IMG/VR virus record: IMGVR_UViG_3300009593_004077
Coordinates: 1 to 20,356 of that record
Source: a virus
Reading direction: 5' to 3' (one strand)
Length of the DNA: 20,356 nt
Below the pieces are notes generated by a model. That model saw only the letters and a program-made list of their open reading frames with translations. It was not told where the DNA came from and ran no database searches. Position numbers and translations under genes: made by a program. This document shows positions 1 through 20,024 of this stretch, one piece after another; within the stretch, counting starts at the first letter, position 1, and each line of letters begins with the position of its first letter.

Positions 1-134
1 AAGATGATGCTGCTGTACCGTTAGAAAATGGTTGGTGTCGTGCTTATCTTTTAGATTACCCTTCTTTAACGGCTGTTCTCGTTGAGGCAGTTAAAGAATT
101 GACAACAAGAGTAGAAACTTTGGAGGGTGCGTAA
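1..134 (+). CDS. C-terminal end of a tail-associated structural protein (partial)
   Basis: An open frame runs in from the left edge (codons begin at base 3) and stops with TAA at 132-134. Only about 43 residues are visible. They end in a short amphipathic helix, LVEAVKELTTRVETLEGA, which looks like the trimeric coiled coil that closes many phage tail fibre proteins, including those with an S74-type intramolecular chaperone. That family link is an inference, because the catalytic part would lie outside the window. The stop codon overlaps the next gene's ATG (TAATG), so the two are translationally coupled, which fits a tail fibre cluster. Confidence 0.6.
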   Translation, partial: DDAAVPLENGWCRAYLLDYPSLTAVLVEAVKELTTRVETLEGA

Positions 135-1147
135 TGGCTATAAATTTTCCTGACAGCCCTTCTGTAAACGACACGGTTACGCAAGGCGATCATACTTGGA
201 TTTGGGATGGCACTACTTGGAAACTTGCTATCGCTACTGCTATTGCTCCTGCTGGTTCTAACACGCAGGTGCAATATAATAGTTCTGGCGCTTTTGCTGG
301 TTCATCAAATTTAACTTTTGACGGTTCAACTGTATCTGTCAGTAGCGGTACAGAAAATATAGGTATTAAAGTTACTTCCACTGATGCAAATGCTTTAATT
401 TCTTTTGCTGATAATGGGGCTACTGCTCATGGATATGCCGCTTTAGGCGGTCAAAGTGATGGATTGGCTTTCTTTGCTGGTGGTTCTCAGAGAGTAACGG
501 TTTTATCTGGCGGCAATGTTGGTATTGGTACTACAACGCCGATGCGTAAGTTAGATGTAGACCAAGAAGTTTTAATGCACCACGGCGACCACGCTTGGCT
601 ATGGCAATCCTATGGTGGAGATTTAAGGCTCTGGTATCAGAGTACTTACACCTCTGGTGATAGTGGCTGGACTAAAGTATTGGATATTGGACCTGATGGT
701 GCTGTGCAGCAACCATTGATTCCAGCGTTTCGTGCCGCTAACACAACAGGAGGCGCAGGTTATATATATAACGGTTCAGTGTCTGGAGCAGGAACTATTA
801 TATGGGGTAGCGATAGCGGATATGGACTATACGATAACGGAAATAACTACAATACAAGCACTGGTATATTTACTGCCCCTGTAGACGGTTATTATCTTTT
901 TACTGCGACTATTTTTATGCACACGTCTTATGATAACGATACCGACTGTTATTGGGGCATTTCAAGCAGCAACGGAATAGTCACAACAAACCACGGAACC
1001 AAAGGTGAAGATGGCGGGCAAACCGCTTCAGGCGTATTTTATTTAGACGCAGGCGATACTGCCAAAGCGTATGTAAATAGTTCTTTGGACCTTTACTCAT
1101 GGCGAACAGAACAATATAACAGTTTTCAAGGAATCCTACTAGGATAA
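134..1147 (+). CDS. Tail fibre protein with C-terminal C1q-like head
   Basis: This is a 337-residue, Gly/Ser/Thr-rich adsorption protein. Residues 1-35 (NFPDSPSVNDTVTQGDHTWI, then WDGTTWK) resemble a short module seen at the start of many phage tail proteins. The middle contains GNVGIGTTTPMRKLDV (about 127-142), a motif typical of fibre proteins. Residues about 196-337 look like a C1q/TNF-type jelly roll: PAFRAANT at the start, GIFTAPVDGYYLFTATIFM in the core, then LDAGDTAKAYV, and a closing SFQGILLG. Such heads form trimers and bind receptors, so this is probably the host-recognition tip. The start is supported by GGAGGG six bases upstream, inside the previous gene. The exact receptor cannot be told. 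Confidence 0.82.
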   Translation: MAINFPDSPSVNDTVTQGDHTWIWDGTTWKLAIATAIAPAGSNTQVQYNSSGAFAGSSNLTFDGSTVSVSSGTENIGIKVTSTDANALISFADNGATAHGYAALGGQSDGLAFFAGGSQRVTVLSGGNVGIGTTTPMRKLDVDQEVLMHHGDHAWLWQSYGGDLRLWYQSTYTSGDSGWTKVLDIGPDGAVQQPLIPAFRAANTTGGAGYIYNGSVSGAGTIIWGSDSGYGLYDNGNNYNTSTGIFTAPVDGYYLFTATIFMHTSYDNDTDCYWGISSSNGIVTTNHGTKGEDGGQTASGVFYLDAGDTAKAYVNSSLDLYSWRTEQYNSFQGILLG

Positions 1148-1648: not shown

Positions 1649-2062
1649 ATGGCTTACGGAGATTATTCAGCGCAGGCTGGCAACATAGGTAGAAGAGTAA
1701 CTGATTATGGTTACGGCTTTGACGATATTCAGCGTGCTAGAGAAGGTCTTGAACGCCAAAATGTTCTTAATAAATTTCAATTAGAAAAGAAGGTGCAGGA
1801 TGCTTCACGTGCTTTGGGGGGAACTTTTAATCGTCGCGGGATGGTTGACAGTGGTTTGCATCGTCGCGGCGTTGAGCGAGGTGCGGCTCAGGCTGAGTTG
1901 GCGAGATTCGGGATTGCGGCGCAATCCGAAGAAGCAGGTCGGCAGTTAGATCGTCAGCGTCAACAGATTGAGGAACAGTTTTATACAGGCAATATGTCTG
2001 ATCAGATCGCTAATGCTTTACGTAGGTTTGGTATAGCGCAGACGTTGGAAGGAATCGTATAA
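1649..2062 (+). CDS. Virion-associated helical protein (137 aa), probable internal or minor structural protein
   Basis: A basic, Arg/Gln-rich protein of 137 residues. After a glycine/tyrosine-rich start (MAYGDYSAQAGNIGRRVTDY) it is mostly helical, with a central motif FNRRGMVDSGLHRRG (about residues 60-74). Motifs of the 'RGM-DSG' kind recur in small structural proteins coded next to internal-virion genes of phages; that link is from memory. No enzyme motif or membrane segment is seen. The start follows AAGGAAAAAG. The stop overlaps the next ATG by one base (TAATG at 2060-2064), so it is coupled to the 723-aa gene, and the two products probably work together in the particle. Confidence 0.7.
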   Translation: MAYGDYSAQAGNIGRRVTDYGYGFDDIQRAREGLERQNVLNKFQLEKKVQDASRALGGTFNRRGMVDSGLHRRGVERGAAQAELARFGIAAQSEEAGRQLDRQRQQIEEQFYTGNMSDQIANALRRFGIAQTLEGIV

Positions 2063-4233
2063 TGGGTGCTCCTATTTCTGGGAATTTAGATGAAGCAATT
2101 AGAGAAGGAATGTACGCTAATGCCATGTCTGAAATGGCTTTAGGTCGTAGAAGTAGAAACACTATTGACAATTTGCAATACGCAGATCTTGTAGCAGCGC
2201 AAAAAAAAGGTCAGAGCGGTTCAACTAACCCTGTTATTCAAGATGCTTTAAGCCAGTTGACAGGTTCAATCGCTCCTGCAGGGGGTATGAATCCTGCAGA
2301 TACTGTGCAACAAAGATATGCTCCACAGGCTGCTTCAACGAATGCTTTAAGCCAGTTGACAGGTTTAATTCCTCAGTCTGCTCCCATGAATCCTGCAGAT
2401 ACTGTGCAACAAAGATACGCTCCACAAGGGCAACTTCCTGCTAATGGCATGAATCCTGCTGATCAGGTACAACAAAGATATAACCTTCCTAATAATCAAA
2501 CAGCAGGTTCTCAGGCATCTACTTCCGCTCTTACTAGCGGCGGTGATTTGCAGGCAGCGATAATGCAGCAAGTAGCGAATCAACCACAATCAACTACAAA
2601 TGTTCCTACAAATACAATTGTTCCTACAAATACAAATGTTCCTGTAGTAACTGGCGGCGGCGGTGGTGGTGGTCAAATGTCTACAGGAGTTCAAGGACTC
2701 GTCGCTCCTACTGATCAAACAGCAAACATTAATGCAGCATTTGACAATTTAGAAGGAACTGTAAGAGACGAGTTCGGCAACTTACAAACAGTAGATTTTA
2801 CAGCGCAGATACAAGATTTAATTGAACAAGGAAGATTGTCTTTACAGGATTTAAATTCTCAACAAATTGTTGCTTTGCAAGAAGCGGCTTTACGTCGTGA
2901 AGGTCAAATAGGTGAGATACAAACTGGTTTAGAAGGCGACCTTGCTCAACAAGAGCAATATCGCCAAACTATACAACAACAAGTCGCTGACCAAGCAGCA
3001 CAACGTGCAGGTCAAATGACCGCAGATCAGGCTGCTCGTGTTGAAGCAGGAAGAGGGGCGTTAGGTCCTCAAGTAACTTCAGAGTTTGAAGAAGTTGCAG
3101 CGCTTACAGGTGGTTTAACTGGATCGCAAGCAATGTCTACTACTGCAGGTATGGATCGTTTGGCTCAGGTCGCTAATCAGGCTGCGGCACAGCGTTTGGC
3201 TGCGCCTGCGCAGTTGGCTGCTGAAGCAAAGATGGCTGTAGGCGATGAAAGGTTCAGATTAGAGAATCAGTTGCAGCAACAACTTTCTGCAGGTCTTGCA
3301 GAGTTGAATATGCAAGAGCAACAGCAAGTGTTGCAAGAGGCTATGCGTCAAGAGCAATTTGGTATTGAGCGTGATCAGGCTATGGCTAATGCTTTGATGA
3401 GTATAGCGAGTCAACGTACTGGCGCTACTTTGGGTGAAGCGCAACGTCTTGAGGATGTTGCTTTACGTCAAGGTGAAATATTGCAGGGTCAGGCTTTCCA
3501 AGCAGGTGAGGCTCAGAAGAATCGTGATTTTCAAGCGGCTCAAGCGGCGGCTAGCCGTGCGGCTGCACGCGCTTCTGAGGATAGAAGATCTGCGGAGCAG
3601 CAGGAAGCGCTTGATAAAGCGGTTTCTGGTCTTGTCGCTAGCGCTGAACAGTTGTATGGCGAGAGTTTAACTACTGAACAGGCTGAGGCTCTTGTTAGTT
3701 CGGGAATGATTGATGTTTGGATGCAGCAGAATCAGACGGCTGATGATCGTGCTTGGATACTTGAGCAAGCAGCCATTGAGCATCAAAATCATCTAGACGC
3801 TTTGGACCATGAAGCAATGTTGGAGGCTGCAGGTGCAGATACTTCTCCTACAGCACTATTTGATGCTCAGAATCCTGACGCTCCTACAGATCTACGTGTG
3901 TACACTTTCCAGTACTGGGATCAAAGCGAAGAAGATAAACAAGCATTTTTACAGAGAGTTTTCCCTACCAATACGGCTAATGATAATATAAATGCTTCAA
4001 ACGCAGGTTCAGTAGCGCAACTTGAGGTTTATTGGGCACAAAGGGAAGCGATTCACGACAATGTACAACAAGAGTTGTGGGCTGCTACTGGAATAGATAA
4101 TTTTGAGAATCCACAAAGAAGCCCTGCTAATACAAGCACTGATGGAATGACTACTACAGAATATTTTGAGCGTGATCCTGCCAAGGAGAGTGGCTCTCTC
4201 AACGGCACCAAATATTTTCCACCATATCCTTAA
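2062..4233 (+). CDS. Large Gln/Ala-rich coiled-coil virion protein with internal repeats (probable internal/ejection protein)
   Basis: A 723-residue protein. Residues 1-65 are ordered. Residues about 66-205 are low-complexity and contain three copies of a peptide MNPAD(T/Q)VQQRY beginning at residues 76, 109 and 130. The first two sit inside a longer 83-base tandem repeat. This part ends in a run of seven glycines near residue 200. Residues about 210-590 are dense in Gln, Ala and Glu and read as long helical coiled coil. The C-terminus is more globular and rich in Trp, Asn and Asp. There is no catalytic motif or membrane span. The composition is like internal core or ejection proteins of podoviruses and some scaffold or tape-like proteins. 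GGAAGGA about 8 bases before the ATG supports the start. It lies directly before the giant protein gene, and a shared role in the virion is likely. Confidence 0.72.
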   Translation: MGAPISGNLDEAIREGMYANAMSEMALGRRSRNTIDNLQYADLVAAQKKGQSGSTNPVIQDALSQLTGSIAPAGGMNPADTVQQRYAPQAASTNALSQLTGLIPQSAPMNPADTVQQRYAPQGQLPANGMNPADQVQQRYNLPNNQTAGSQASTSALTSGGDLQAAIMQQVANQPQSTTNVPTNTIVPTNTNVPVVTGGGGGGGQMSTGVQGLVAPTDQTANINAAFDNLEGTVRDEFGNLQTVDFTAQIQDLIEQGRLSLQDLNSQQIVALQEAALRREGQIGEIQTGLEGDLAQQEQYRQTIQQQVADQAAQRAGQMTADQAARVEAGRGALGPQVTSEFEEVAALTGGLTGSQAMSTTAGMDRLAQVANQAAAQRLAAPAQLAAEAKMAVGDERFRLENQLQQQLSAGLAELNMQEQQQVLQEAMRQEQFGIERDQAMANALMSIASQRTGATLGEAQRLEDVALRQGEILQGQAFQAGEAQKNRDFQAAQAAASRAAARASEDRRSAEQQEALDKAVSGLVASAEQLYGESLTTEQAEALVSSGMIDVWMQQNQTADDRAWILEQAAIEHQNHLDALDHEAMLEAAGADTSPTALFDAQNPDAPTDLRVYTFQYWDQSEEDKQAFLQRVFPTNTANDNINASNAGSVAQLEVYWAQREAIHDNVQQELWAATGIDNFENPQRSPANTSTDGMTTTEYFERDPAKESGSLNGTKYFPPYP
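2245..2426 (+). repeat. Tandem 83-base direct repeat within the 723-aa gene
   Basis: Two near-identical 83-base units lie at 2245-2327 and 2344-2426 (period 99 bases, a multiple of three). Both begin GCTTTAAGCCAGTTGACAGG and end GCTCCACA. A shorter third copy of only the last part (ATGAATCCTGC...CAACAAAGATA) follows at 2449-2480. The units keep the frame and encode NALSQLTG...MNPADTVQQRYAPQ, which suggests duplication of a short linear peptide. Confidence 0.9.
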
Positions 4234-4243
4234 GCGGTAAATA

Positions 4244-7200
4244 ATGGCAACAGAAAATGATCTTGCAGAAGATTTTAGGAGGCTTGCTTCTGAAACTTTG
4301 ACTAAAAGGGCAACTCCTCCAGAGTTGCCTTCTGGTCCTCCTCAGTTTGCTGCACCTAAAAACAAAATGCTTGAATCTTTAGGCATCAAGTATTTAGACC
4401 CTAAAGTCTACGGTGTAGACACAGCCCTTTCTAGGGATAAATCTTTTTGGGAAAGAGATCAGCCTTTTGGCTTGTACGGCGACATGCCTGTCAGACCAGA
4501 TCCTACTACTGTTTCGTGGATGAACGAGGTGTATCAAGACAGGGCTTATGATAATCTTCCTTGGCATCAAAAACTTTTAGTCAATGTTGGTAAAGCCGCT
4601 ACTACTGGTTTGACAGGATTCTTATTTAAAACAATACAGTATCCGTTGACGGTGATGGCTGTTGGCGCTCGATTATTTCTGGAAAATCAGCATAAATTTA
4701 ATCCTTTTGTAAATGAGGCTCAGGGCAATCCTGAAAACAGAATGGGTGTCAGGGATGCTTTCGGCAAGTTAAACATTTTTTCAGGTTCTGGTACTTACAC
4801 TTTTGGTGAAGTTTTACACGACATGGATTATTTGCAAGATACTCATTGGGCTTGGAAAGTGGGGCTTGCAGGTGATATTTTCTTAGATCCTTTAACTTAT
4901 TTGACTGTTGGTATAGGTAAGGCAGGCCTACTTGCCGCTAAAGTTGCTGCTAAGGGTGGTGTAACAATTGCTCGCCATACGGCTAGAAGAGCAGTTCAAG
5001 AGGCTGCTGAAATAGCCTTTGAAGCGGCTGGTCGAAGCGCTGACGAGATTGCAGGAATTTCTGGCAGAATTGCTGCTCTTCCTGATTCTACTATCAATCA
5101 ATTAGCAGACAGTATTGTAAGCGGATCTACTTATTCTCGTGGTTTTAATACTGTTACAGGCGAAATCGACGATGTTGTTAAACATGTCGATGATGCGGTT
5201 GAAGTTAATCTTCGTTCTTTATTTGATGAAGTCGGAGAAGGCGCAATAGATGATGTTTATTTGACTTTAAACGCTGATGATGTTGCAGATATGCGGATCT
5301 TGTTTGATCCGCAAATTCGTGGAACTACTGGCGTGTCTGACGATGTTTTACGTGTTGCTGCTACGCAAATCCATAAAAATCGGTTAGATGAAACTTTGCG
5401 AGTTGTACCAAAACAAGCCGATGATGCTGTTGGAGTTTTTGCAAAAGAAACTAATAAAAAAGGTTTTTATGGCGCTAGAACAAGGCAACCGAGAGAATGG
5501 TTTCCAGACATAGGTGAAGCACAGAACGTTCACTTGGCTCTCGGGTTTAAAGTTCCTCTTTCGGGAAGTCTTGGCCAGAAAATTTTTAGACACAACTTGC
5601 AGCAACCTATTGGGTTTAAAGTTCTTGGTTCTGCAACTAACCCTGTTATTGGCACTTGGTTAAGGGCTATACCGCAGGCAACTCGGTCACTTTTCTTTGG
5701 ACGTAAAATTGTTAAAAACGGTCCTTTGGCGAGAATTTTTGCTGCAACAACTGGGAAGGCGGCCCCTGAAGGGGTGCTTGGCACTGCTGAAGGTGGTTTG
5801 ATTGGTTGGATGCGACGTGGTGGGCGCAGGCAAGATGTAAGACAATTGGCTAGGCAGGCGTTTAGGGATGGCGACGCTGTTGCTGTGCATCAGTACAAGT
5901 CGCTTCTTCATATCAGTGGTCGTGGTGATGCTGCGGCTAGGAAAGCAGGAACTGATTTAAGTCGTTTGTTGAAAGAGTTTCGGAGAAATTCTTTAATATC
6001 TAGCGTTGATAGTCAAGATCTTGTTGCGGCTTTAAGAGGAAATGAAGAAGCCATTGGAATCCTTAACAATGTGCAAGGCACTAGGGAAATAGGTGGGAAA
6101 ATTGAAACTGTTACCGCTTACGATTTGGCTCAAGAGTTTATGGAAAACTTGCGTGTTGTTTCTAACAGAATGGCGCATAGGGACTTTTTAGGAAAAGTTG
6201 ATAATTATTTGCCTCGTGTTTTAAGCGATGATGCTGCAAGATATTTGGAATCTAAAAAAAGTGGGTTGATTGGTCGTCGTCACAAGAATGTGAAACGTAA
6301 ATATGGTCCTTCTGGTTTTGAAGAAAGACGTACATATGTTTCTGCTGAGGAGTATGACGAATTAGTTAAGCAAAAAGGTGAAGAAGCGGTTCTTGAATCT
6401 GGTATGCAGAAAACGTTTTTAGGTGAGGAACTTTATGATCCTGCTAATGCTAATGGTTTGTCTGTTGAGGAACAGATTGCCGAGATCATGCATTCTAAAG
6501 GAATCAATTATTCTTTGTTTGATGACGATTTTGATCGTGTAATGGACGTATATATAGGGGCTATTTCTAAGCGTATAGGGGAAGTTTATTCAGAGTCTCT
6601 TCTTATTAAAGAGGGAATTTTTGTTGATGTGACAACTTCTTTTGTTCATATCCCAAATGGTGAAGTTGCTGGCGCTGTACATAATGTACGTAAAGCGCAA
6701 ACAAAGGTCGTTCAAAGCGCCAATGCTTTAGATGAAGCATTAGAGGAAGCGATTTTACAAGGTAGCGAAGAGGTTGCGAAGCAAACTCGGTATGTTAAAC
6801 AATTAGAGGAAATTGCTAAGCAGGCTCAAACAGAGTATGACAGCGCTGTAGCAAAATTCAACAAGTTGGCTGAAGATGCCCTTCAGTTGGAAGAATTAAA
6901 CGAAGCAAGGCGCGTTGCTGTAGATGAAATAAACAGGAAACTTGCCGCTATAAGCGAAGGGGCTGCTTTTTCTGAAAAGGTTGTTGCGGCTGCTGAAGAG
7001 GCTAAACGACTTCTTGACGAAAAAGAAAGATTATTTACGAGTGGTTTGCTTGATTTCCATACAGGCGCGTTAAAAACTGCTTCTGTTCAGAAAATGGTTT
7101 TAGAGAACAGGATATTTAGTTTATTCGGAAGTAAGAAAAGGTGGGATGATTTTGCTGAACTCGCAAAAGGATATGATCCAATCGAACAACCTGATTTTGC

Positions 7201-10200
7201 TGCGTACATAAAACAGGTAGCGCCAGATATGGCTGACGACGATGTGGCTAAGAATGTTGAGTGGATGAATCAAGTATCAGAACTCGTTTCTGATATTGAT
7301 TCAACTCCTCAGGGTCCTTGGCTTGCTTTGCAAAACGAGACCGTGGAGTCGCTTCAAGGGCAACCTTCACTTTCTAATTTTGTAAACAATATTGAAGGCA
7401 CTTTCAAAATGCTTGATAACCAAATTGAAATTTCTCAAGGGATTGTTTCAGATGGTCAACAACTGTTAGCAGACGCTGGTGTCGCTATGGAAGATCTTTT
7501 TGTAGGCGGCAAACTTCCTACTCCAGAAAACATTTCTGAAGCGAAGCAGATAATCGTTCAAAAGTTGGATGAAGCAATGGCTCCTGAGACGGTTGGTCAT
7601 TGGTGGGAGATTCCTATTGGGCATCCTGAATATAGCAAACCTATGGCTGCATCTAAACAGTATTTAGATCTTGATGCTGCTTGGGTTAAGTTGATGTCAG
7701 AAGATCCAGATTTTAAAAATGCTGTTCATTTGTTTTATGACTCTTTTAAGGGTTTCAACGTTAAAGCCGCTTTTGTTGATGGTCAGGATTTAAACAATTT
7801 GATTGAGAGCGGTATTCGTGGTTTGGATGATAAGAGGATGCTTGCGAAAGAATTAGGTTCGCTTGAAATTTTCAATGATCCTTTAATCGCTTCTAATGGC
7901 AAGGGTAGAGTCTTTAACGATGTCACTGTGCAGGATTTGGCTACTTGGATAAAGTGGAGAGATCAGACGCTTACAAGTTTTAACTCTGGGTCTTTACCTG
8001 CGCCTGTTACTCATAACTCTGCTGAAGATATTCTTCAAGGCGGCATCCTCAGAGGTGTAAGTCAACATAGTGACACTGGATATGTTTTGGAAGATCTTGG
8101 TGTTGATTTGGAAGATGCGGAAGATCTTTTAGAAATTCTTGATGGAAGTAATCTTGTCGTAAAAGTTGATTTTGGTGATAAAACATATTTTTTGAAAAGG
8201 TATTTGGGCGATCAGGGGCTTCAAACTTCTATAGATTTACCTAATGCTTCTGCTGCTGAGCATCGTGTGACTGGCGAAGTTTTGGCTGATAATCTTTATG
8301 ATCAGTTGTCGAGCGGTGGCGCTCCACGTTCTTCTTACAGTTTCATAGATAATGGAACTGAGTTAGATGGTTGGTGGAAGGTTTCTGAAGAGGTTGAGCA
8401 GATTATACCTGCGGATGGGTACGATGTTTCTACGCAGGACAGGCGAACATCACTTAACTCGCAAGGTGAGATTCTTGGTTATGAGATTGTTCGTATAGCG
8501 AACCCTCAGGATGTTATTGCTGCTACTGATGTGCCTTTACGTGAGTTGAGGCAACAGAGTTTTATGGCTGATGTTCTTTTAGGCAACCATGATGTTATGG
8601 GTTATGGCGGACCTGATGGAGTCAACTTTGGTATTAACAGGTTAACTGGGGAGTTTGTTCGTTTAGATAACGGCGCTTCGTTCTTTTACAGGGGGCGTGG
8701 TGTTCCTAAGTCTAGTGACCCTAGTTTTAACTTTGGCGAGGTTCAAGAAATGTTTGGGCCTGAAACTTTCTTTGACGAAAGTTACGAAAACACTATCGGG
8801 CATGTTAACGATAATCTGCTCATGAGGCAGGGTTTAGGTAGCGCTGCTGGATTCGTAAGCGAAATGAGTAACCAATTAGATGTTTTGCTTGATATTCGTC
8901 TAAATAGTGGAGGTTGGGAAAATTGGGTTCGTAATCTTATGCCTGATCTTTCTGACGATAATGTCGCCTTGTACACAGCATGGCTTGATGAGCGTTCTAG
9001 GACGTTAGCGAGAAAGTTTAATAAGAAATTTGATGACGATATTCCTGTTCCTCGTGTTTTAAACCTGATTCATCGTTCTAAGTTGGAAGGGTTTTTACCT
9101 CAGGGGCAAATTATAGGTACCGCAGATGCAGCGTGGTTAGATTCTCAGGCTGGAATGAACGCCAACGTAGGGAATGTAGAAAATGCTCTTTTCGAGCCTG
9201 ATGACTCTGAATACCTTATTCAACTTGGTCTGCCAAGAGATGCTGGCGGTGCGAGGTTTTATGGTTACGCATTAGTTGAAGAAGATGAATTGGTTGAGTT
9301 GTTAATCGAGCAAAGCAAATTAAATCCTAAAAATGAGGTAGGTGAATTTGTTGAACTTGAAAGGCACATTGAGGCGCTTGAAAGAACTATAGAAGATGAT
9401 GCTAGGGCGATAGGTCTTTCTGGGGCTACTGTTTTTGATGGTGGTGTCAGGGATCAGGCTTGGGATATTGCTGAAAGAGTATTCAACTCTGATCCAGATT
9501 TGTTAAGAAATTATTTGGAACAAGCAAGTTCTACAATTGTCGGTGGAGGTTCAAATACAGCCGCTTATGCGGATTTTGTTCTTGAGTTGATGGATAGTGT
9601 TGATCGTCTTTCTAGCAGGTCTTTGTTTGGGATTGATCCTGACGGTGTTCCGCTTGGGTGGAGAGACAAAATGTTGATTGTGTCACAAATTCTTAGACTT
9701 GACGATATTGGATTTGGGGCATCAGTTGGAAAAGTTGATCCTGCACTTAAAGGAATTTTAGACGATTGGTTCTTGAGGGTCCCTAGTGCATTGAGTGAAC
9801 CAAAAGAGGTTTATGAGAATTTGCCTGAAGTGATAGGGATACTTGAAAGTTTGCCAGATGTGAGACTGAGGGAACTTATCAGTCGGAGAATCTCAGGATT
9901 GAGTAGCGACGCTGGGATTGGTGCAAGAAGAGCCAGTTGGATTAAGCGTTTACAGTGGGAGCAAAACCCTTTACTTGCCGCTTTTCATGATGGTCGAATT
10001 TTTAGAGAAGGAACTCACGCTTCTTTAGGTTGGAGTAATAGGAACGTTAGATCAGTACTTCACCGAGAATTGTTTGGAAGTTCTACAGCGGAAATGGATA
10101 GGGTTTATCGTCTTGCTGATGAGATCATTAGAGAAGAAGGTGGTTCTTTTACAACTGTTTCTGGTGGAGATTATCTTACAGGGCAAAGCGAGGCTGGCGT

Positions 10201-12715
10201 TGCAGGTATTACTCCTGCGATTAGGGCTACAGGTGATGTAAGCGGAATCATTAAAAGATTTTTTGCAGACGAAGGGTTACCTGTTCCTGATATAGATTCA
10301 GCGACTTTAAGGCTTATAGAAGAGGAACTGATGTTAAATAAACTTCCTTCAAGAGTTTATTCAACATACAGAAATTCTTTAACCCTTGATGGCTACAATG
10401 TTGCTGTTTGGCGAAACCGCAGGGAAGCGGTTTCGGTTACAGGCCATGGTTCAGAAATTAGGGGTCAATCTTCATTCATGTTGACGAACCCTCATGCTGT
10501 TAAACCTGTACAGTCTGTCGATTCTCAGATAAAAATGATGGCTGGTGAAATTGATGGGCAAGGAAAATTGTTGGATTATGAGAAAGCAATCGACGAATAC
10601 ATAGAAGCAATTGATGCAGAGTTTGCAGGGATGACTGCTCGGCAAAGGGCTGATTGGGGCGAAAAGTTTGAAAAGTTCATAAATCCTGATGATGTTCTTG
10701 TTCAAATGCAAAACAGTTCGCAGCAGCGTATAGCAGGTTTGGGTTCTGTAGGTTTAGAAAGTGAGGCTTTGAAAGATTTGGCAGAGGCTCGTGCGAGAGT
10801 TGAATCTGCAGGGTTGCCTGCTAAGGAACTTAAAGAAGCGAGAATTGTTTTAGAGGGAGTGCAAAGCCGTGTAGATGAAATGTCTCGTGCGCAAAGAACG
10901 TTAAATGTGATTTTGGACGAAAACAGTATCAATCTTGAAGCACCATTGTTAAGAGGCGCTTACGAACAGTTGCAGACTTCTGTCGCTATTCTCCATTCTG
11001 TAAATCTTGAACAAAACAGAAAAGCGCTTGAACTTGCTTTAGGTCAAGGAGATCTTAATGATATCGCTAGATACATTGGAGACATTAATCAAGGGTCTGT
11101 TGATGGAATAAGTAATGAACTTTTGCAGGCTATAGAGGGTTTAAAAACTTTAGAGGGTGCAAGACCGATACCTAAAGGCGGTATTGCCGCTGAGCCTATT
11201 TCTCCTGATGACGATTTTTGGTTTCCTTTGAAGTCTTTTCAGGATAGAGAAAAGATTTTAGATGAAGTTTTTGTATCTGGTTTTAAGGCTTTTGGTGTGA
11301 ACGCTCAGGGTCCTGAAGCGATGGTTGATGCTATGACTGCTGTTACACGTTTTCAGGCTCAAGGCGGTTGGGGTGCGTTCCTTAGACAATACGATAAAGT
11401 CCATAACCTAACCAAGGGCTATATGATTGCGAAACCTGGGTTTCATATGAGGAACCTTTTTTCTTCTACTTTCATGAACTTTTTACATGGTGTAGATATT
11501 GCTAGTTATCGCCAGTTCCAACGTGCTTATTGGCAAGTTCAACATGAATTGGCTGTGGAGCGTGGGGCTGTTAAAACGGCACGGAACATCAGGGTTGCTA
11601 TGCGTTCTAGGGGCATTTGGAGAAAAACCAACGATGATGCTAAAGCGATTGTACGCGAAATGCTTGATGAAAATATTGTTGGTACTTCTGCTGGTCAGAT
11701 AGGTGTGGAATTTACTGGGGGTAGTGCACGTGGGGGCAGGATTCGTCGTGCTTGGAGTACTGTGAATCCGTTTAATTCTAGAAACCTTCCTTTGCAGTTG
11801 TCTAAAAATGTTGGTATGGGTGTTGAGACTTATGTGCGTGGTGCGCTTGGGTTTGATGTTATTAAAAAAGGTGGAACAGTCGATGAGGCTTTTGACGCTA
11901 TAACTACTTGGCATTTTGATTATGACGATTTGTCTGATTTTGAACGTTTTGTTGTTAAAAGGATCATTCCATTTTATACATGGACGAAAAATGCTATGCC
12001 TTTGATGATTGAGCAGATAGGTAAAAATCCTGCAAAAATGAGTTTGTATTTCAAGTTAAAGAACAATGTGGAGCAAGGTCAAGACCGTGCGCCAATTGTT
12101 CCTGAATATTTTCATCGCCAACAAGCCATGCAATTACCTATCAAGTACAAGGGTGAGAACATGTTTTGGTTACCTGATTTACCATTTAAGGCTCCTTTTG
12201 AATTGCTTGATCCTACTTTGTCTTTTGATACAGATATGACTGTTGCTGATAGGGTTAAAACGGCTTTGGGTAGTGTTCTTACTCAAACGACGCCTTTGAT
12301 TAAAGCGCCTGTTGAGTGGTATATGCAACGTAACATTTGGAAAGGTTATTCTTTTTCAGGCAGGTATCAGGAAGTTCCTACTGCTTATCAGACAATTCCT
12401 TTACTTATGCCCATGTTAGATAAGTTGGGTTTGAGCGAGAATCAAGATGATAGATGGTTTATGAAGGATTACGATTTGCATGCCATGGCGCAATTGTTGC
12501 CTACTTTCACGGATTTGCGTAGGTTGTTTCCTAGTGAGGAGCGGTATCAGCAAAGAACTTTGTCTAGTTGGTTGAGTTTTGTGTTTGGTGCTGGTATTAG
12601 AACTAATACACGTGACGAGCAGCAACGTGTATTACAATCTTTAAGGTACGAACGTCAAGAGGAAATTGACGACATGAACTCTTTACGCAGGGCTGCTGCT
12701 AGAGCGAATCAATAG
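4244..12715 (+). CDS. Giant 2823-aa virion/polyvalent protein with embedded HipA/PI3-4K-like kinase module and LPD38-like C-terminus
   Basis: The N-terminal region has hydrophobic helices (about 120-146 and 205-240). A segment DNYLPRVLSDDAARYL lies near residue 655. A long coiled coil covers about 810-930. Residues about 1270-1560 look like a protein-kinase-like fold: beta-strand lysine in YFLKRY (K1318), glutamate in GEVLADNLY (E1345), catalytic-loop NHDVMG (D1450) with N1461 eleven residues on, and metal-binding RLDNGASFFYRG (D1475). This is the pattern of HipA-like / PI3-4-kinase-like enzymes. Residues about 2390-2640 (GYMIAKPGFHMRNLFSS; RIIPFYTWTKN at 2574-2584) resemble LPD38, a domain of phage polyvalent proteins. 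No lytic transglycosylase motif was found. Position after two virion-type genes and before lysis genes suggests it is packaged and ejected. The kinase call is fairly firm, its substrate unknown. Confidence 0.8.
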   Translation: MATENDLAEDFRRLASETLTKRATPPELPSGPPQFAAPKNKMLESLGIKYLDPKVYGVDTALSRDKSFWERDQPFGLYGDMPVRPDPTTVSWMNEVYQDRAYDNLPWHQKLLVNVGKAATTGLTGFLFKTIQYPLTVMAVGARLFLENQHKFNPFVNEAQGNPENRMGVRDAFGKLNIFSGSGTYTFGEVLHDMDYLQDTHWAWKVGLAGDIFLDPLTYLTVGIGKAGLLAAKVAAKGGVTIARHTARRAVQEAAEIAFEAAGRSADEIAGISGRIAALPDSTINQLADSIVSGSTYSRGFNTVTGEIDDVVKHVDDAVEVNLRSLFDEVGEGAIDDVYLTLNADDVADMRILFDPQIRGTTGVSDDVLRVAATQIHKNRLDETLRVVPKQADDAVGVFAKETNKKGFYGARTRQPREWFPDIGEAQNVHLALGFKVPLSGSLGQKIFRHNLQQPIGFKVLGSATNPVIGTWLRAIPQATRSLFFGRKIVKNGPLARIFAATTGKAAPEGVLGTAEGGLIGWMRRGGRRQDVRQLARQAFRDGDAVAVHQYKSLLHISGRGDAAARKAGTDLSRLLKEFRRNSLISSVDSQDLVAALRGNEEAIGILNNVQGTREIGGKIETVTAYDLAQEFMENLRVVSNRMAHRDFLGKVDNYLPRVLSDDAARYLESKKSGLIGRRHKNVKRKYGPSGFEERRTYVSAEEYDELVKQKGEEAVLESGMQKTFLGEELYDPANANGLSVEEQIAEIMHSKGINYSLFDDDFDRVMDVYIGAISKRIGEVYSESLLIKEGIFVDVTTSFVHIPNGEVAGAVHNVRKAQTKVVQSANALDEALEEAILQGSEEVAKQTRYVKQLEEIAKQAQTEYDSAVAKFNKLAEDALQLEELNEARRVAVDEINRKLAAISEGAAFSEKVVAAAEEAKRLLDEKERLFTSGLLDFHTGALKTASVQKMVLENRIFSLFGSKKRWDDFAELAKGYDPIEQPDFAAYIKQVAPDMADDDVAKNVEWMNQVSELVSDIDSTPQGPWLALQNETVESLQGQPSLSNFVNNIEGTFKMLDNQIEISQGIVSDGQQLLADAGVAMEDLFVGGKLPTPENISEAKQIIVQKLDEAMAPETVGHWWEIPIGHPEYSKPMAASKQYLDLDAAWVKLMSEDPDFKNAVHLFYDSFKGFNVKAAFVDGQDLNNLIESGIRGLDDKRMLAKELGSLEIFNDPLIASNGKGRVFNDVTVQDLATWIKWRDQTLTSFNSGSLPAPVTHNSAEDILQGGILRGVSQHSDTGYVLEDLGVDLEDAEDLLEILDGSNLVVKVDFGDKTYFLKRYLGDQGLQTSIDLPNASAAEHRVTGEVLADNLYDQLSSGGAPRSSYSFIDNGTELDGWWKVSEEVEQIIPADGYDVSTQDRRTSLNSQGEILGYEIVRIANPQDVIAATDVPLRELRQQSFMADVLLGNHDVMGYGGPDGVNFGINRLTGEFVRLDNGASFFYRGRGVPKSSDPSFNFGEVQEMFGPETFFDESYENTIGHVNDNLLMRQGLGSAAGFVSEMSNQLDVLLDIRLNSGGWENWVRNLMPDLSDDNVALYTAWLDERSRTLARKFNKKFDDDIPVPRVLNLIHRSKLEGFLPQGQIIGTADAAWLDSQAGMNANVGNVENALFEPDDSEYLIQLGLPRDAGGARFYGYALVEEDELVELLIEQSKLNPKNEVGEFVELERHIEALERTIEDDARAIGLSGATVFDGGVRDQAWDIAERVFNSDPDLLRNYLEQASSTIVGGGSNTAAYADFVLELMDSVDRLSSRSLFGIDPDGVPLGWRDKMLIVSQILRLDDIGFGASVGKVDPALKGILDDWFLRVPSALSEPKEVYENLPEVIGILESLPDVRLRELISRRISGLSSDAGIGARRASWIKRLQWEQNPLLAAFHDGRIFREGTHASLGWSNRNVRSVLHRELFGSSTAEMDRVYRLADEIIREEGGSFTTVSGGDYLTGQSEAGVAGITPAIRATGDVSGIIKRFFADEGLPVPDIDSATLRLIEEELMLNKLPSRVYSTYRNSLTLDGYNVAVWRNRREAVSVTGHGSEIRGQSSFMLTNPHAVKPVQSVDSQIKMMAGEIDGQGKLLDYEKAIDEYIEAIDAEFAGMTARQRADWGEKFEKFINPDDVLVQMQNSSQQRIAGLGSVGLESEALKDLAEARARVESAGLPAKELKEARIVLEGVQSRVDEMSRAQRTLNVILDENSINLEAPLLRGAYEQLQTSVAILHSVNLEQNRKALELALGQGDLNDIARYIGDINQGSVDGISNELLQAIEGLKTLEGARPIPKGGIAAEPISPDDDFWFPLKSFQDREKILDEVFVSGFKAFGVNAQGPEAMVDAMTAVTRFQAQGGWGAFLRQYDKVHNLTKGYMIAKPGFHMRNLFSSTFMNFLHGVDIASYRQFQRAYWQVQHELAVERGAVKTARNIRVAMRSRGIWRKTNDDAKAIVREMLDENIVGTSAGQIGVEFTGGSARGGRIRRAWSTVNPFNSRNLPLQLSKNVGMGVETYVRGALGFDVIKKGGTVDEAFDAITTWHFDYDDLSDFERFVVKRIIPFYTWTKNAMPLMIEQIGKNPAKMSLYFKLKNNVEQGQDRAPIVPEYFHRQQAMQLPIKYKGENMFWLPDLPFKAPFELLDPTLSFDTDMTVADRVKTALGSVLTQTTPLIKAPVEWYMQRNIWKGYSFSGRYQEVPTAYQTIPLLMPMLDKLGLSENQDDRWFMKDYDLHAMAQLLPTFTDLRRLFPSEERYQQRTLSSWLSFVFGAGIRTNTRDEQQRVLQSLRYERQEEIDDMNSLRRAAARANQ
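4307..4331 (+). other. Inverted repeat (10-bp stem with one G-U) near the 5' end of the giant gene
   Basis: Arms AGGGCAACTC (4307-4316) and GAGTTGCCTT (4322-4331) enclose a 5-base loop. In the + strand RNA all ten positions pair, one of them as G-U. The stem starts about 60 bases after the start codon and encodes a Pro-rich linker (RATPPELPSG). It could modulate early elongation or be an RNA-processing site; chance is not excluded. Confidence 0.4.
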
Positions 12716-12734: not shown

Positions 12735-13508
12735 ATGGATTTCAATTTACCAGTTACTTCTAAATGGGTACGCACGGAAGAGTTGCACCCTAAATTCAAA
12801 TACAGGTTAAATCAGTTTTTTAAAGATAACCGTATTGTTGGGCGTGTGAAGATTGTCAGCGGTGTACGCACGTTAGCGCAACAACAGGCGTTATATGACA
12901 AGTACAAGGCAGGTCGCGGGAATCTCGCCGCGAATCCAATGAGACGCATGTCTAATGGCATGCGTGGTTCTTACCATATGGCTCAGGAGGCTTTCGGTGG
13001 CTATGGTTATGCTGTTGATTTAAGGATTACAGGCAAAGGGCTGTCTACTGCTGAGGTGAATCGTATCGCAGCGGAGTATGGCTGCGTGAAAACGGTACCT
13101 TCGGAGTGGTGGCATGTATGTCCTGGGCGTGTACAGGGGTCAGAATTTGTGTGGTTTGACGCTCCTGCGGTTTCAGGTGATGAAACCTTGGATGCTGTGA
13201 AAATGGACCCTAAGACACCCCTTCAGATCTTCGCTGAGGCGGTCACAGAGGCTCGTCAGCACGTCCTACGCAAGGGCAGTAGGGGTAAACCTGTTGAGGT
13301 GCTTCAACTGTTCTTAGAGCAAGAGGGGTTCTGCACGGCACGGAACAAGAAACGTTCACGTAAGGGCGCAGGAATCGATGGCATTTTTGGTTCAGGTACA
13401 AGGGCTGCTGTTATGAAGTTCCAAGAATCTGAATTTGTAAACACAGGTAACAAACTCACTGTGGATGGGATCGTTGGTCCTTCTACGTGGAATGCGTTAA
13501 TAAATTAG
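12735..13508 (+). CDS. Endolysin: VanY-like (M15) zinc peptidase plus peptidoglycan-binding domain
   Basis: A 257-residue lysis enzyme that cuts peptide bonds in host peptidoglycan. Residues about 20-135 form a VanY/M15-type D,D- or L,D-carboxypeptidase-like domain. Visible motifs are SGVRTLAQQQALYDKY (conserved Arg45), zinc ligands H81 (GSYH), D95 (YAVDLR) and H127, and the catalytic E124 in SEWWHV. The H81-D95 spacing is longer than the usual H-x6-D, because a Gly/Tyr-rich insert (AQEAFGGYGY) lies between. Residues about 178-257 (KPVEVLQLFLEQEGF; VDGIVGPSTWNALIN) are a PG_binding_1-type repeat. There is no signal peptide, so release should depend on the holin coded 100 bases downstream. The ribosome site is AGAAAGG. 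Confidence 0.92.
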   Translation: MDFNLPVTSKWVRTEELHPKFKYRLNQFFKDNRIVGRVKIVSGVRTLAQQQALYDKYKAGRGNLAANPMRRMSNGMRGSYHMAQEAFGGYGYAVDLRITGKGLSTAEVNRIAAEYGCVKTVPSEWWHVCPGRVQGSEFVWFDAPAVSGDETLDAVKMDPKTPLQIFAEAVTEARQHVLRKGSRGKPVEVLQLFLEQEGFCTARNKKRSRKGAGIDGIFGSGTRAAVMKFQESEFVNTGNKLTVDGIVGPSTWNALIN

Positions 13509-13812: not shown

Positions 13813-14166
13813 ATGAGCGAAGAAGATACCAACATAGCCTTTGAGCAGTGGTGTAGAGCAGAAGGTGACGCTATCGCTGATGAGATAAGGGATAGCATGA
13901 AGGCCAGTTCAAGCGTATTGAACGTTGATGATGGTTCTCACGCTGTTTGGCATGAAGGTAATTTAGGTTTGCTTTTAGTTCTTCCATTTGAGCATGCTAT
14001 GGCTTTTGCTGTTGAGCATGAAAACAATGATGTTGAGACTAATCCTGTACACAACTACATATTTAACACTATTAGTAACCTTGTTCTTCGCGCTACAAAC
14101 ATAATGGATTTCCCTGATGATCCTGCAGAATGGCAGGATTGGGCTGACGATTTTGGTGAAGATTAG
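13813..14166 (+). CDS. Small acidic protein at the end of the + strand block, function unknown
   Basis: A 117-residue acidic protein whose ATG follows the holin stop directly. It begins MSEEDTNIAFEQWCRAEGDA and has a central hydrophobic strand LGLLLVLPFEHAMAFAV, then helices, and ends in WQDWADDFGED. No signal peptide, clear membrane span or catalytic motif is seen; the hydrophobic strand is probably buried rather than transmembrane. The tight spacing places it in the lysis cassette, so an antiholin or late regulatory role is possible but unsupported. Its stop codon overlaps the stop of the convergent gene. Confidence 0.72.
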   Translation: MSEEDTNIAFEQWCRAEGDAIADEIRDSMKASSSVLNVDDGSHAVWHEGNLGLLLVLPFEHAMAFAVEHENNDVETNPVHNYIFNTISNLVLRATNIMDFPDDPAEWQDWADDFGED

Positions 14167-14696
14167 ATCTTAATGTGTTCGTATTGGTCGCTTAAAGGTA
14201 AGCGCCAAATGTTCCTAACCACCATGCATCCTATGATGCAGTAACCTACAAGGTCTAAGAACGTATCTTCGATGCTTTCAAAGTTACCGTTTCTTCCTGC
14301 AAGGTTTTCTAGTCTGGCTATTTTGTCATGTATACGCACAAGCAAGCCGTCTGTTCCGAATCTGCTTATATTCTCGTATCCGTAATCTTCTTGCTTTTTT
14401 CTAAGCAGTGGAATTACTTGCGTTGCAGTTAGTTCAAAGTCGTCGTCGTAATAGAATTTTGTCATGTCTAGGAACATGATTGCCATTGCTGTGAACCAGT
14501 TAGCGCCGACATCTTCGTACACTTCTGCGCCGTAATAAACTGCTGAAAACGTGTCGTATTCGTTGCGTATGACTCCTAAAAGGAGGTCGTGGTCTTGTGA
14601 GTGAGGGTGCCTCACTCCTTGTACACGTTTTGTATCTATGTTGTTTGCCATCAGCCCTGCGGCTGCATCCCATGTTTCTGGGCTAATTTTTCTCAT
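14163..14696 (-). CDS. DUF1599 / Nmad1-like protein (nucleotide-modification-associated, all-alpha)
   Basis: A 177-residue helical protein. The C-terminal half carries a recognisable signature: KKQEDYGYENISRFGTDG (about 100-117), LLVRIHDKIARLENL (118-132) and ESIEDTFLDLVGYCIIG (140-156). This is the K-x-DYG / R-DK--RL / E--DTLLDL-Y pattern of DUF1599 (nucleotide modification associated domain 1), related to the all-alpha NTP pyrophosphatase fold. In that fold the Glu/Asp residues bind metal and a nucleotide. The N-terminal 90 residues are extra and of unknown role. A possible job is handling modified or non-canonical dNTPs. The start follows AAGGAA at 7-base spacing and overlaps the sigma-like gene by 14 bases. 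It is the last gene of the - strand block. Confidence 0.75.
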   Translation of the reverse strand: MRKISPETWDAAAGLMANNIDTKRVQGVRHPHSQDHDLLLGVIRNEYDTFSAVYYGAEVYEDVGANWFTAMAIMFLDMTKFYYDDDFELTATQVIPLLRKKQEDYGYENISRFGTDGLLVRIHDKIARLENLAGRNGNFESIEDTFLDLVGYCIIGCMVVRNIWRLPLSDQYEHIKI

Positions 14697-15006
14697 CTAA
14701 AAATTCCTTAACTATTTCGTGTCGGGAAAGTTCTTCCCCGAGTTTTTTCAATATTTGATCTCTTCTACGAGCAACTGTCGTTTTAGGTATGCCTAAAATG
14801 TATTCGACATCTCGTAAACTCAGTTTTTCAAACAGTAAAGCGTTAATGATCCAGAGTTCTATGCCTTCAAGAGTGTCGTATGCGTTAAATACTAATTCGT
14901 GTAACGCTGTTCGATCTACCCCTGAGAATCTTTCGTCTTTGCCTGAAAGTGTTTCTTTCAGCCAAGATAAGTGCGAAGGGTCAGTTGGTATTTCCTTGCG
15001 ACTCAT
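14683..15006 (-). CDS. Sigma-70 region 4-like DNA-binding regulator (107 aa)
   Basis: A small protein whose residues about 45-92 read as sigma-70 region 4: LEGIELWIINALLFEKLSLR, then DVEYILGIPKTTVARRRDQI, then LKKLGEEL. This is a helix-turn-helix of the LuxR/sigma type that would contact a -35 element or the beta-flap. There is no region 2, so it cannot act alone as a classical sigma factor. The first 40 residues are unrelated and short. Likely roles are an anti- or co-sigma factor that redirects host RNA polymerase, or a simple repressor or activator. It overlaps the upstream gene by 26 bases and the downstream gene by 14, so it is part of the replication operon. The ribosome site is weak. 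Confidence 0.78.
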   Translation of the reverse strand: MSRKEIPTDPSHLSWLKETLSGKDERFSGVDRTALHELVFNAYDTLEGIELWIINALLFEKLSLRDVEYILGIPKTTVARRRDQILKKLGEELSRHEIVKEFLDEKN

Positions 15007-15430
15007 CTACCCATACTAACGCAGCAGGTATCGCATAGTACTGTTTCCCCTCAGGAAACGATTCTATCGTCGCTTTTCTGCACAATTTTTGCAAATCGCT
15101 GTACTCTATTAACGCATTTCTGTCATTTGTTGAGTCATAAACAAAAAGTTGCACTTTGTGCATTCGGTTCCATGAACCTAATGCTTTCATTTTTTCTAGT
15201 TTCATTTTCAACATCTGATCTTTGCCTAAACCTTGCACTTCTACAAGGTTGTTTGACGTTAAATAATCAGGTGTATGCCTTATGGAAAGAGGCAATGAAG
15301 CCATGTTTAGAGGGGGTCTGTTAAGTCCGTAACGTATGTAATTGACTTCGGATGTTTCTTCAAATTTTCGTTCAGCGATATCGCCCATCATTTGTATTCT
15401 TTGGTTGAACGGCCTATCTGCAAAACTCAT
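14981..15430 (-). CDS. PD-(D/E)XK-like nuclease-fold protein (149 aa)
   Basis: A 149-residue protein with the layout of a small restriction-endonuclease fold. There is an N-terminal helix with E20 (GDIAERKFEE), then RHTPDYLTSNNLVEVQGLGK, giving D55 and the E64-x-Q66 pair. After that comes a basic helix (KDQMLKMKLEKMKALGSWNR) and a strand VQLFVYDS. Gln replaces the usual Lys of the (D/E)XK motif, a variation known in some families. Similar 'TPDY...VEV-G-G-D' proteins are common in actinophages, usually called hypothetical. It may be a structure-specific nuclease working with RusA, or an inactive relative. Its ATG overlaps the stop of the 39-aa gene (ATGA). Confidence 0.7.
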   Translation of the reverse strand: MSFADRPFNQRIQMMGDIAERKFEETSEVNYIRYGLNRPPLNMASLPLSIRHTPDYLTSNNLVEVQGLGKDQMLKMKLEKMKALGSWNRMHKVQLFVYDSTNDRNALIEYSDLQKLCRKATIESFPEGKQYYAIPAALVWVDESQGNTN

Positions 15431-15546
15431 TTGTTTTTACGTTCTTCTTTACGCTTCAAGTATCTTTTATGATCCTCTTCACGTGCTTTTTCAAGCGCTT
15501 TTTTTGTCATTGTGGTATTCATGCCAGTAGGACTGATGTTACCCAT
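15427..15546 (-). CDS. 39-residue basic helical peptide between RusA and the nuclease-fold gene
   Basis: A short frame opens 8 bases after the rusA stop with a near-perfect ribosome site (AGGAGG, 7 bases before ATG). It starts MGNISPTGMNTTMTKKALEK and continues as a strongly charged helix rich in Lys, Arg and Glu, ending ERKNK. The stop TGA overlaps the next ATG as ATGA, a classic coupling. The strong ribosome site and exact fit between two genes make translation very likely, although it is short. No family is recognised; the charged single helix could bind nucleic acid or a partner protein. Confidence 0.72.
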   Translation of the reverse strand: MGNISPTGMNTTMTKKALEKAREEDHKRYLKRKEERKNK

Positions 15547-15554
15547 GTTTCCTC

Positions 15555-15956
15555 CTATAGTTTTGTGGCTTCTACGTGAACGACTTGCGAGTCGTTCACG
15601 ATAATTCCAGCACGTTGAATCCCATCTAACGCTAGTTTTACGTAATTATCTAGGTCACCTCTAAGGGGCGACTTCCATGATTTGTCCACAGATTCGATAT
15701 TCACGACTGTACTGTCGTTAGAGAAAATCAATCCAACTTTTACAGGTCCCACGAAAACAGGTGCGTCATCACCTGCAGCATAAGCGTATTCTTCTTCGGC
15801 GCTTACAGTAGCAGCAGGCGTATAAACTCTCCCTTTGCGAGACATTCGTGGGCGGCCCTTTGGTACAGGCCGCCCATGAACTAAAAAGTTAAACTCAGTT
15901 ATGTCTGGTTGCTCGTTGTCTTGCGTCGGCAACGAGTCTTTTGATTTGTCGGTCAC
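15555..15956 (-). CDS. rusA: RusA-like Holliday junction resolvase
   Basis: A 133-residue endonuclease that cuts four-way DNA junctions made during recombination and replication. The family signature is clear. VHGRPVPKGRPRMSRKGRVY (about 26-45) is followed by TPAATVSAEEEY, GPVKVGLIF, the acidic core LRGDLDNYVKLALDGIQRAG (about 97-116) and IIVNDSQVVHVEATK. The Asp residues of GDLDN and of VND are the expected Mg-binding residues, and all are present. It starts at GTG; an AGGAAGG site 7 bases upstream favours this over later codons, even though it makes a 62-base overlap with the primase gene. Its place after primase and helicase fits a role in resolving replication intermediates before packaging. 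Confidence 0.93.
   Translation of the reverse strand: MTDKSKDSLPTQDNEQPDITEFNFLVHGRPVPKGRPRMSRKGRVYTPAATVSAEEEYAYAAGDDAPVFVGPVKVGLIFSNDSTVVNIESVDKSWKSPLRGDLDNYVKLALDGIQRAGIIVNDSQVVHVEATKL
15575..15600 (-). other. Perfect 11-bp inverted repeat in the 3' end of rusA
   Basis: Arms CGTGAACGACT and AGTCGTTCACG lie around a 4-base loop, with no mismatch. The hairpin ends about 18 bases before the rusA stop and about 30 bases before the strong ribosome site of the 39-aa gene. It overlaps codons for the conserved VNDSQVVHV strand, so both protein and RNA constraints may act. No T-run follows, so it is not a standard terminator. Confidence 0.6.
15849..15876 (-). other. GC-rich 9-bp inverted repeat over the RusA GRP motifs
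   Basis: Arms TGGGCGGCC and GGCCGCCCA flank a 10-base loop, and in the - strand RNA an extra U-G pair can extend the stem to 10. The arms encode the two GRP tripeptides of GRPVPKGRPR, so part of the symmetry comes from the protein. The choice of complementary synonymous codons is what makes it perfect. Confidence 0.45.
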
Positions 15957-17878: not shown

Positions 17879-18596
17879 CTATTTTGCTCAACCATCCTTG
17901 AGGATCAATGGCCTCTGGCCTGTCACCCCATGTAAAGGGGCTGTGTTTAACTAACCCACCAAAGTAACCGCTTTTGTTAGCAAGGGGATGATTGCCTTCG
18001 CTTTGCCCTAGCACATACGAACCGTCTTGATTCATGCTTAGACCGCGCTTGATCTTGAAATCCCCAAGACCACATTTGCCATTTTTGGTTGTTGGTATAT
18101 CTGAACCTCGCATGGATTCCACAAAGAAATCAGCAGGGAACTGGCGGTGGCCAGCAGCGAACATTTTACGTATCGCTTGATTATCCATAAATGCTGATTG
18201 TTGTGAACCATACTGAATGCCTTGTGAACGTTCATATATGAAGATTTTGTTTACTTCCGCATATGATTCGTCATCAATGTATTTAGATTCACCAGCCGTA
18301 AAGGTTGGTTTTGCTGTTTGTTGCACAACAGTTGCTTCTGGGAAAGCATCAACAACCGTTGCCACGGCTGCTGCTGTTGCATTTTCTACGCTCGCTCCAC
18401 TGATGTGTGCTTCCAGAGATGTTTTCAACTCTGGTAACGCATCAGCGAGTGCTTGCGCATTCATAATAGCCATCGTTGCGGCTACGCCTTCCTCACCTGC
18501 GGCAAGTTCGGCTATTGCAAGGTCTGTCCCTGCTTTAATAAGCACTTGTGCTTCTATTGATGCCCTTTCACTCGGGCCGAGTGGCTTAAATGCCAT
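17871..18596 (-). CDS. Unknown 241-aa protein in the recombination/replication operon
   Basis: I do not recognise this family. Residues 1-90 are Ala-rich helices (SERASIEAQVLIKAGTDLAI...), probably a coiled bundle. Residues about 95-110 form a linker (AKPTFTAGESKY). The rest is a mixed, aromatic and Gly-rich domain: EVNKIFIYERSQGIQYGSQQ, then QAIRKMFAAGHRQFPADFF and GLGDFKIKRGLSMNQDGSYV. No nuclease, ATPase or zinc motif is visible. It lies between a Cas4-like nuclease and a helicase, where phages often encode single-strand binding or annealing proteins, so a DNA-binding partner is a reasonable guess. GGAG before the ATG supports the start, and the gene overlaps the helicase by 8 bases. Confidence 0.72.
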   Translation of the reverse strand: MAFKPLGPSERASIEAQVLIKAGTDLAIAELAAGEEGVAATMAIMNAQALADALPELKTSLEAHISGASVENATAAAVATVVDAFPEATVVQQTAKPTFTAGESKYIDDESYAEVNKIFIYERSQGIQYGSQQSAFMDNQAIRKMFAAGHRQFPADFFVESMRGSDIPTTKNGKCGLGDFKIKRGLSMNQDGSYVLGQSEGNHPLANKSGYFGGLVKHSPFTWGDRPEAIDPQGWLSKIDA

Positions 18597-18599
18597 AAT

Positions 18600-20023: not shown

Positions 20024-20024
20024 A

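What the first reader, a model, noticed from the sequence alone, without database searches (positions are those of the whole stretch)
8050..8925. Kinase-like module embedded in a giant phage virion-type protein
Seen: residues about 1270-1560 contain an ordered set of kinase-like positions: K1318 in YFLKRY, E1345 in GEVLADNLY, NHDVMG with D1450, N1461, and RLDNGASFFYRG with D1475. Known: HipA-like and PI3/4-kinase-like enzymes use this K-E-D-N-D layout. Inferred: if the protein is ejected with DNA, the phage delivers a kinase (or an AMP/ADP-transferring relative) at the moment of infection, perhaps to disable a host defence or shut down translation. All key residues are present, so it is likely active.
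Basis: partly seen in the sequence, partly recalled or inferred. Interest (0 to 1): 0.75.

Follow-up and report, generated by a model that had tools for sequence, protein, structure and literature searches.

The report
Kinase domain in phage ejection-type protein
A giant protein encoded among the particle genes of an uncultured bacterial virus contains a real, probably active kinase-like enzyme domain that is present in every checkable relative of that protein and belongs to a large, mostly unnamed phage family, so these viruses may carry a kinase into the cell with their DNA, although neither delivery nor activity has been shown.

Summary
AlphaFold2 with 68 homologues gives mean pLDDT 79, pTM 0.86, and Foldseek against the PDB returns kinase-fold enzymes: CotH, CtkA, PRPK, HipT, PI4KII. 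A family profile built without this protein or its full-length relatives matches it at E=1.5e-17, and at 9e-10 with the search motif masked; the best of 1000 shuffles scores 4 bits. Relatives fetched by the C-terminal domain alone carry the kinase in 34 of 34 testable cases; K, E and the last D are always kept, while D1450 and N1461 are lost together in four sequences. The domain is one branch of a large phage family found with ADP-ribosyltransferase, NUDIX and MuF domains. Gene order places the giant where podoviruses keep internal, ejected proteins. Not shown: packaging of this protein, ejection, activity, substrate. HipA-like kinases in phages were already reported (PMC8008677), so this is a new variant of a known kind.

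The parts
4244..12715 (+). Giant protein P0001, 2823 aa, ejection-type (internal virion) protein by gene order
   Evidence: full-length homologues of 2.6-3.3 thousand aa
8051..9043 (+). Kinase-like domain, residues 1270-1600 (HipA/CtkA/CotH-like fold)
   Evidence: AF2 mean pLDDT 79, pTM 0.86; Foldseek PDB E 2e-5 to CotH kinase, 4e-4 to CtkA; family profile E 1.5e-17
8144..8152 (+). G1301-S1302-N1303, start of N-lobe strand, conserved G-S/T-N in the family
8195..8197 (+). K1318, expected ATP-binding lysine
   Evidence: invariant
8276..8278 (+). E1345, expected salt-bridge glutamate
   Evidence: invariant
8585..8602 (+). N1448-x-D1450-V-x-G1453, expected catalytic loop
   Evidence: invariant in A4; D1450 40/44 in C-term-fetched relatives
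8624..8626 (+). N1461, expected metal-binding asparagine
   Evidence: 40/44, lost together with D1450
8660..8695 (+). R1473-L-D1475-N-G1477, DFG-like metal-binding aspartate loop
   Evidence: D1475 44/44
11249..12700 (+). Conserved C-terminal domain of the giant (residues 2336-2819), shared with a MW202803 protein that lacks the kinase
1649..2062 (+). 137-aa protein, first of the conserved cassette (size and place like T7 gp14)
2062..4233 (+). 723-aa Gln-rich protein of the cassette (size and place like T7 gp15)
134..1147 (+). Tail-fibre-type protein, 337 aa
   Evidence: PHROG 9942 tail fiber, E 5.4e-13
12735..13508 (+). Endolysin-like protein, 257 aa
   Evidence: PHROG 2649 endolysin, E 3.4e-21

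Best explanation
The domain is a catalytically competent atypical kinase of the HipA/CtkA/CotH-like group, built into the middle of a giant internal virion (ejection) protein of an uncultured podovirus. Most likely the protein is packaged in the particle, enters the cell with the DNA as internal core proteins do, and the kinase phosphorylates one or more host proteins in the first minutes of infection, before any phage gene is expressed. Shown by computation: homology, fold, active-site conservation, fixed presence in the lineage, gene context. Inferred: packaging, ejection, phosphotransfer, host target.
For: Kinase fold with pTM 0.86 and kinase-fold enzymes as the leading PDB matches; CtkA best PDB sequence match, E 3.5e-4; HipA_C in 14/68 relatives, best E 1.3e-5. 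K-E-D-N-D invariant in 68 diverse members. 34/34 giants fetched without using the kinase carry it. D1450 and N1461 change together in four sequences, as expected if they serve one catalytic role. The cassette 137 aa - 723 aa - giant - endolysin-like lies in the structural half of the genome after portal, major head and tail genes, the order of T7 genes 8-16 (general knowledge). Relatives sit in proteins with ART, MuF, NUDIX or portal domains; one is annotated 'phage particle associated protein' in Yersinia phage fHe-Yen8-01. A homologue of the giant without the kinase exists (MW202803), so the backbone does not need it.
Against: No virion proteomics for this lineage; the Yersinia note is an annotator's wording on a protein of different architecture. 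No sequence link to T7 gp14-16 was tested. Foldseek TM-scores are modest (about 0.4) and the window domain alone hits no Pfam family. Four relatives have lost D1450 and N1461, so part of the conservation may be structural. I could not inspect coordinates to measure whether the five residues meet in one pocket.
Confidence: 0.62

Rival explanations
1. The kinase is active but acts late, inside the producing cell: it modifies virion proteins during assembly or the host envelope against superinfection, and is not an injected effector.
For: It is encoded among late structural genes; Benler et al. (PMC8008677) proposed superinfection immunity for HipA-family kinases encoded between portal and MCP.
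Against: Fusion within one giant protein whose C-terminal domain and gene position are of internal-virion type, and family association with ART and MuF proteins, fit packaging better.
Confidence: 0.17
2. It is a kinase-fold enzyme that transfers something else (AMP, glutamate) or phosphorylates a lipid or small molecule.
For: The fold group includes lipid kinases; PI4KII and the 4jw1 'Effector protein B' chain appear among weak matches; SelO and SidJ show that the fold can change chemistry (general knowledge).
Against: The standard K-E-D-N-D set is kept in canonical order, and the best matches are the protein kinases CtkA and CotH.
Confidence: 0.12
3. It is a pseudokinase: a nucleotide-binding or purely structural module kept for assembly or unfolding during ejection.
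For: Present in 34/34 giants; two small groups keep the domain but lost D1450 and N1461.
Against: 40 of 44 relatives keep all five catalytic positions while overall identity in the region is low.
Confidence: 0.08
4. The motif set is coincidence in an unrelated domain.
For: Pfam, PHROG and PDB searches with the window domain alone found nothing; the first AF2 model without homologues was poor.
Against: Profile match with the motif masked, fold prediction and search, invariance in diverse homologues.
Confidence: 0.01

Closest known systems
HipA-family kinase of Gratiaviridae gut phages (Benler et al. 2021, PMC8008677)
   Same: HipA-like kinase encoded in the head gene region of phages
   Different: Five gut phages, found by HHpred, encoded between portal and MCP and interpreted as superinfection immunity; not compared here sequence to sequence, so membership in the same subfamily is untested
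Phage ART/MuF/NUDIX proteins carrying the same domain (Aeromonas ST4, Pseudomonas Dolphis, Gordonia Forza group, Yersinia fHe-Yen8-01)
   Same: Homologous domain with the same K, E, N-x-D, N, D residues
   Different: Other architectures (0.7-3.3 thousand aa, often with ART); D-A-G or D-T-G in place of D-N-G; annotated only as ADP-ribosyltransferase or hypothetical
CtkA of Helicobacter pylori (3akk) and CotH spore-coat kinase of Bacillus cereus (5jd9)
   Same: Best fold matches, Foldseek probability 1.00; CtkA is best by sequence profile
   Different: 12% identity, TM about 0.4; stand-alone cellular proteins
HipA/HipT toxins
   Same: Kinase fold and HipA_C profile hits in relatives
   Different: No toxin-antitoxin arrangement; embedded in a 2823-aa virion-type protein
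Kinase of polyvalent proteins (Iyer et al. 2017, PMC5512222)
   Same: Kinase in very large proteins thought to enter the host with DNA
   Different: That group is described as Ser/Thr/Tyr-type, lacking the C-terminal subdomain, with a conserved His and Asp; here the position before D1450 varies (H/Y/W/T/R) and C-terminal helices are present
T7 gp0.7 kinase
   Same: Phage kinase acting on the host (literature)
   Different: Expressed after entry, not carried in the particle; different family

Membership tests
Protein-kinase-like fold, HipA/CtkA/CotH-like group | Two-lobed kinase fold | tested here: met
   AF2 pTM 0.86; kinase-fold enzymes lead the PDB matches
Protein-kinase-like fold, HipA/CtkA/CotH-like group | Lys-Glu pair, catalytic Asp, Asn and metal-binding Asp in order | tested here: met
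   Invariant in 68 sequences
Protein-kinase-like fold, HipA/CtkA/CotH-like group | ATP binding and phosphotransfer | not testable with these tools
   Needs protein
HipA toxin family (Pfam HipA_C / HipA_2) | Match to the family model | tested here: inconclusive
   Window domain none; 14/68 relatives match HipA_C at best E 1.3e-5, HipA_2 weaker
HipA toxin family (Pfam HipA_C / HipA_2) | Adjacent HipB-like antitoxin | tested here: not met
   Same-strand neighbours are the 723-aa protein and an endolysin-like gene; judged from the gene table, no HipB profile search run
CotH (PF08757) | Match to the family model | tested here: not met
   No CotH hit for the window domain at E 10
Polyvalent proteins (Iyer 2017) | Very large phage protein combining several effector domains | tested here: inconclusive
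   2823 aa with one recognised enzyme domain; relatives of the domain carry ART, NUDIX, MuF, LPD38
Polyvalent-protein kinase of Iyer 2017 | Conserved His-Asp and loss of the C-terminal subdomain | tested here: not met
   No conserved His before D1450; C-terminal helices at model residues 265-322
Internal virion (ejection) protein of podoviruses | Gene order portal-head-tail-internal proteins | tested here: met
   order inferred across the contig ends of G001
Internal virion (ejection) protein of podoviruses | Present in particles and ejected | not testable with these tools
   Only a record note for a distant homologue

The most novel reading that the evidence does not exclude
A whole lineage of podoviruses has a particle-borne kinase fused into its DNA-ejection protein, delivered with the genome, and it represents a broad phage family of injected kinases (at least several hundred copies in IMG/VR) that works alongside injected ADP-ribosyltransferases to rewire the host before phage gene expression.
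Probability: 0.5. Interest if true: 0.8.

Novelty: new variant of a known kind. Interest (0 to 1): 0.64.

Why it matters
Injected phage enzymes are known mainly as ADP-ribosyltransferases (T4 Alt) and virion RNA polymerases (general knowledge). A kinase held in 34 of 34 checkable ejection-type proteins of a lineage, in a family spread over hundreds of phage contigs with no clear Pfam or PHROG model, would add phosphorylation to what a particle can do to a cell at entry. It gives concrete residues (D1450, D1475) and cultured relatives (Gordonia, Pseudomonas putida and Aeromonas phages) in which to test it.

Tried and rejected
Pfam, PHROG and PDB searches with the window domain alone: nothing. 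tblastn against phage and plasmid records with the domain: no real match. Single-sequence AlphaFold: useless, pLDDT 35. DNA pattern with the window's exact spacing: only the one close relative. The link to the phage family first came from a motif I recalled; it was then tested with profiles, masking and shuffles. The region after the kinase was considered by eye as a possible ART remnant, but Pfam gave no support. A 'coincidental motif' reading was rejected. Literature searches for a described virion HipA-like kinase returned only Benler 2021; most subscription papers are not held.

Full report
Observation. The giant ORF 4244-12715 (+) encodes 2823 aa. K1318, E1345, D1450, N1461 and D1475 are at the stated positions. 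The window is a 20,356-base IMG/VR virus record.

Finding relatives. Direct searches gave only one close relative, contig IMGVR_UViG_3300030107_002518 (L003), with a 2821-aa homologue at 52% identity over the full length and all five residues kept. A motif I remembered from phage ART proteins (N-x-D-V-V-G...R-x-D-x-G) was used as a lead and matched 19 annotated phage records. Their domain (alignment A3) aligned with ours by profile comparison at probability 91%, E 1.1e-6, and 456 stretches in IMG/VR encode relatives of A3. Two degenerate DNA patterns then returned 47 and 40 stretches; nearly all translate to this family, the clear exception being L168. Among them are 18 contigs with homologues of the giant itself.

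Independence of the evidence. Some loci were fetched by a pattern taken from the window, which inflates similarity at residues 1443-1454. I therefore built a profile from the non-giant members only. It scores the window protein 50.1 bits (E 1.5e-17), and 24.6 bits (E 9e-10) with residues 1443-1454 masked; the best of 1000 shuffles reaches 4.0 bits. I also fetched relatives with the C-terminal domain alone: of 34 whose sequence reaches far enough upstream, 34 carry the kinase. Some of the 34 are near-identical to each other, and several lie in contigs already seen, so the number of independent lineages is smaller. In those, nine shorter ones and the window, K1318 and E1345 are kept in 43 of 43, D1475 in 44 of 44, D1450 and N1461 in 40 of 44. 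The four exceptions (L242/L250 and L219/L254) have lost D1450 and N1461 together, which looks like two pseudokinase branches; that they are independent is inferred from their differing sequences, no tree was made.

Fold. AlphaFold2 with 68 sequences (A4) gives mean pLDDT 79 and pTM 0.86 for residues 1270-1600. Foldseek against the PDB has three matches at E <= 0.001: CotH kinase twice (2.0e-5, 2.6e-5) and CtkA (4.4e-4); PRPK, WaaP, HipT and PI4KII follow with weaker scores. TM-scores are about 0.4, so the fold class is well supported and the exact subfamily is not. HipA_C matches 14 of 68 members, best E 1.3e-5; CtkA is the top PDB sequence match at 3.5e-4. BFVD matches are phage 'ADP ribosyltransferase' and portal-type proteins.

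Context. The related contig G001 has, on one strand, portal (E 8.8e-27), major head protein (3.1e-72), structural and internal-virion-type genes; the window has a tail fibre gene, then 137 aa, 723 aa, the giant, and an endolysin-like gene. Parts of this cassette recur in other contigs of the lineage. Its order and sizes recall T7 genes 14-15-16; that comparison is from general knowledge and no sequence homology to T7 was tested. Podovirus MW202803 has a 1312-aa homologue sharing the C-terminal domain (E 5.1e-29) but no kinase, so the kinase is a module. Among 43 other proteins with the domain, Pfam finds the ADPrib_exo_Tox domain in 10, ART in 2, ART-PolyVal in 1, MuF in 6, NUDIX in 6, and LPD38, portal, minor capsid and minor tail in 1 each. 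The homologue in Yersinia phage fHe-Yen8-01 is annotated as a particle-associated protein.

Mechanism. Best reading: a packaged, ejected kinase that modifies host proteins at entry. Homology, fold, active-site conservation and fixed presence are shown computationally; packaging, ejection, activity and targets are inferred.

Prior work. HipA-family kinases in phages were described in Gratiaviridae (PMC8008677) and a different kinase in polyvalent proteins (PMC5512222). I found no paper in the held library describing a kinase within a podovirus ejection-type protein.

Noticed in passing
L242, L250, L219, L254: Giants that keep the kinase domain but have lost the D1450 and N1461 equivalents together: probable pseudokinase branches.
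   Followed up: partly
L214 (ORF residue ~40), L215 (ORF residue ~1082): Some giants carry a NUDIX-box motif; Pfam also found NUDIX in 2 of 15 giants (E 7.6e-11).
   Followed up: partly
L255-L311: The family occurs in 57 bacterial genome contigs (Microvirga, Endozoicomonas, Actinomycetes, Gastranaerophilales, Pseudomonas syringae group and others), mostly in proteins of 500-1600 aa; whether prophage or cellular was not determined.
   Followed up: no
window 14683-15006 (-): 107-aa protein with a helix-turn-helix-like stretch (LGIPKTTVARRRDQILKKLG), conserved across the lineage; may be a phage regulator.
   Followed up: no
window 14163-20354 (-): Opposite-strand replication module: by eye RusA-like, primase-like, RecA/DnaB-like ATPase and RecB-like nuclease genes, largely conserved in order with L003.
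   Followed up: no
window 12735-13508 and equivalents: The endolysin-like gene after the giant keeps its place but diverges strongly in the lineage (28-40% identity in partial matches).
   Followed up: no
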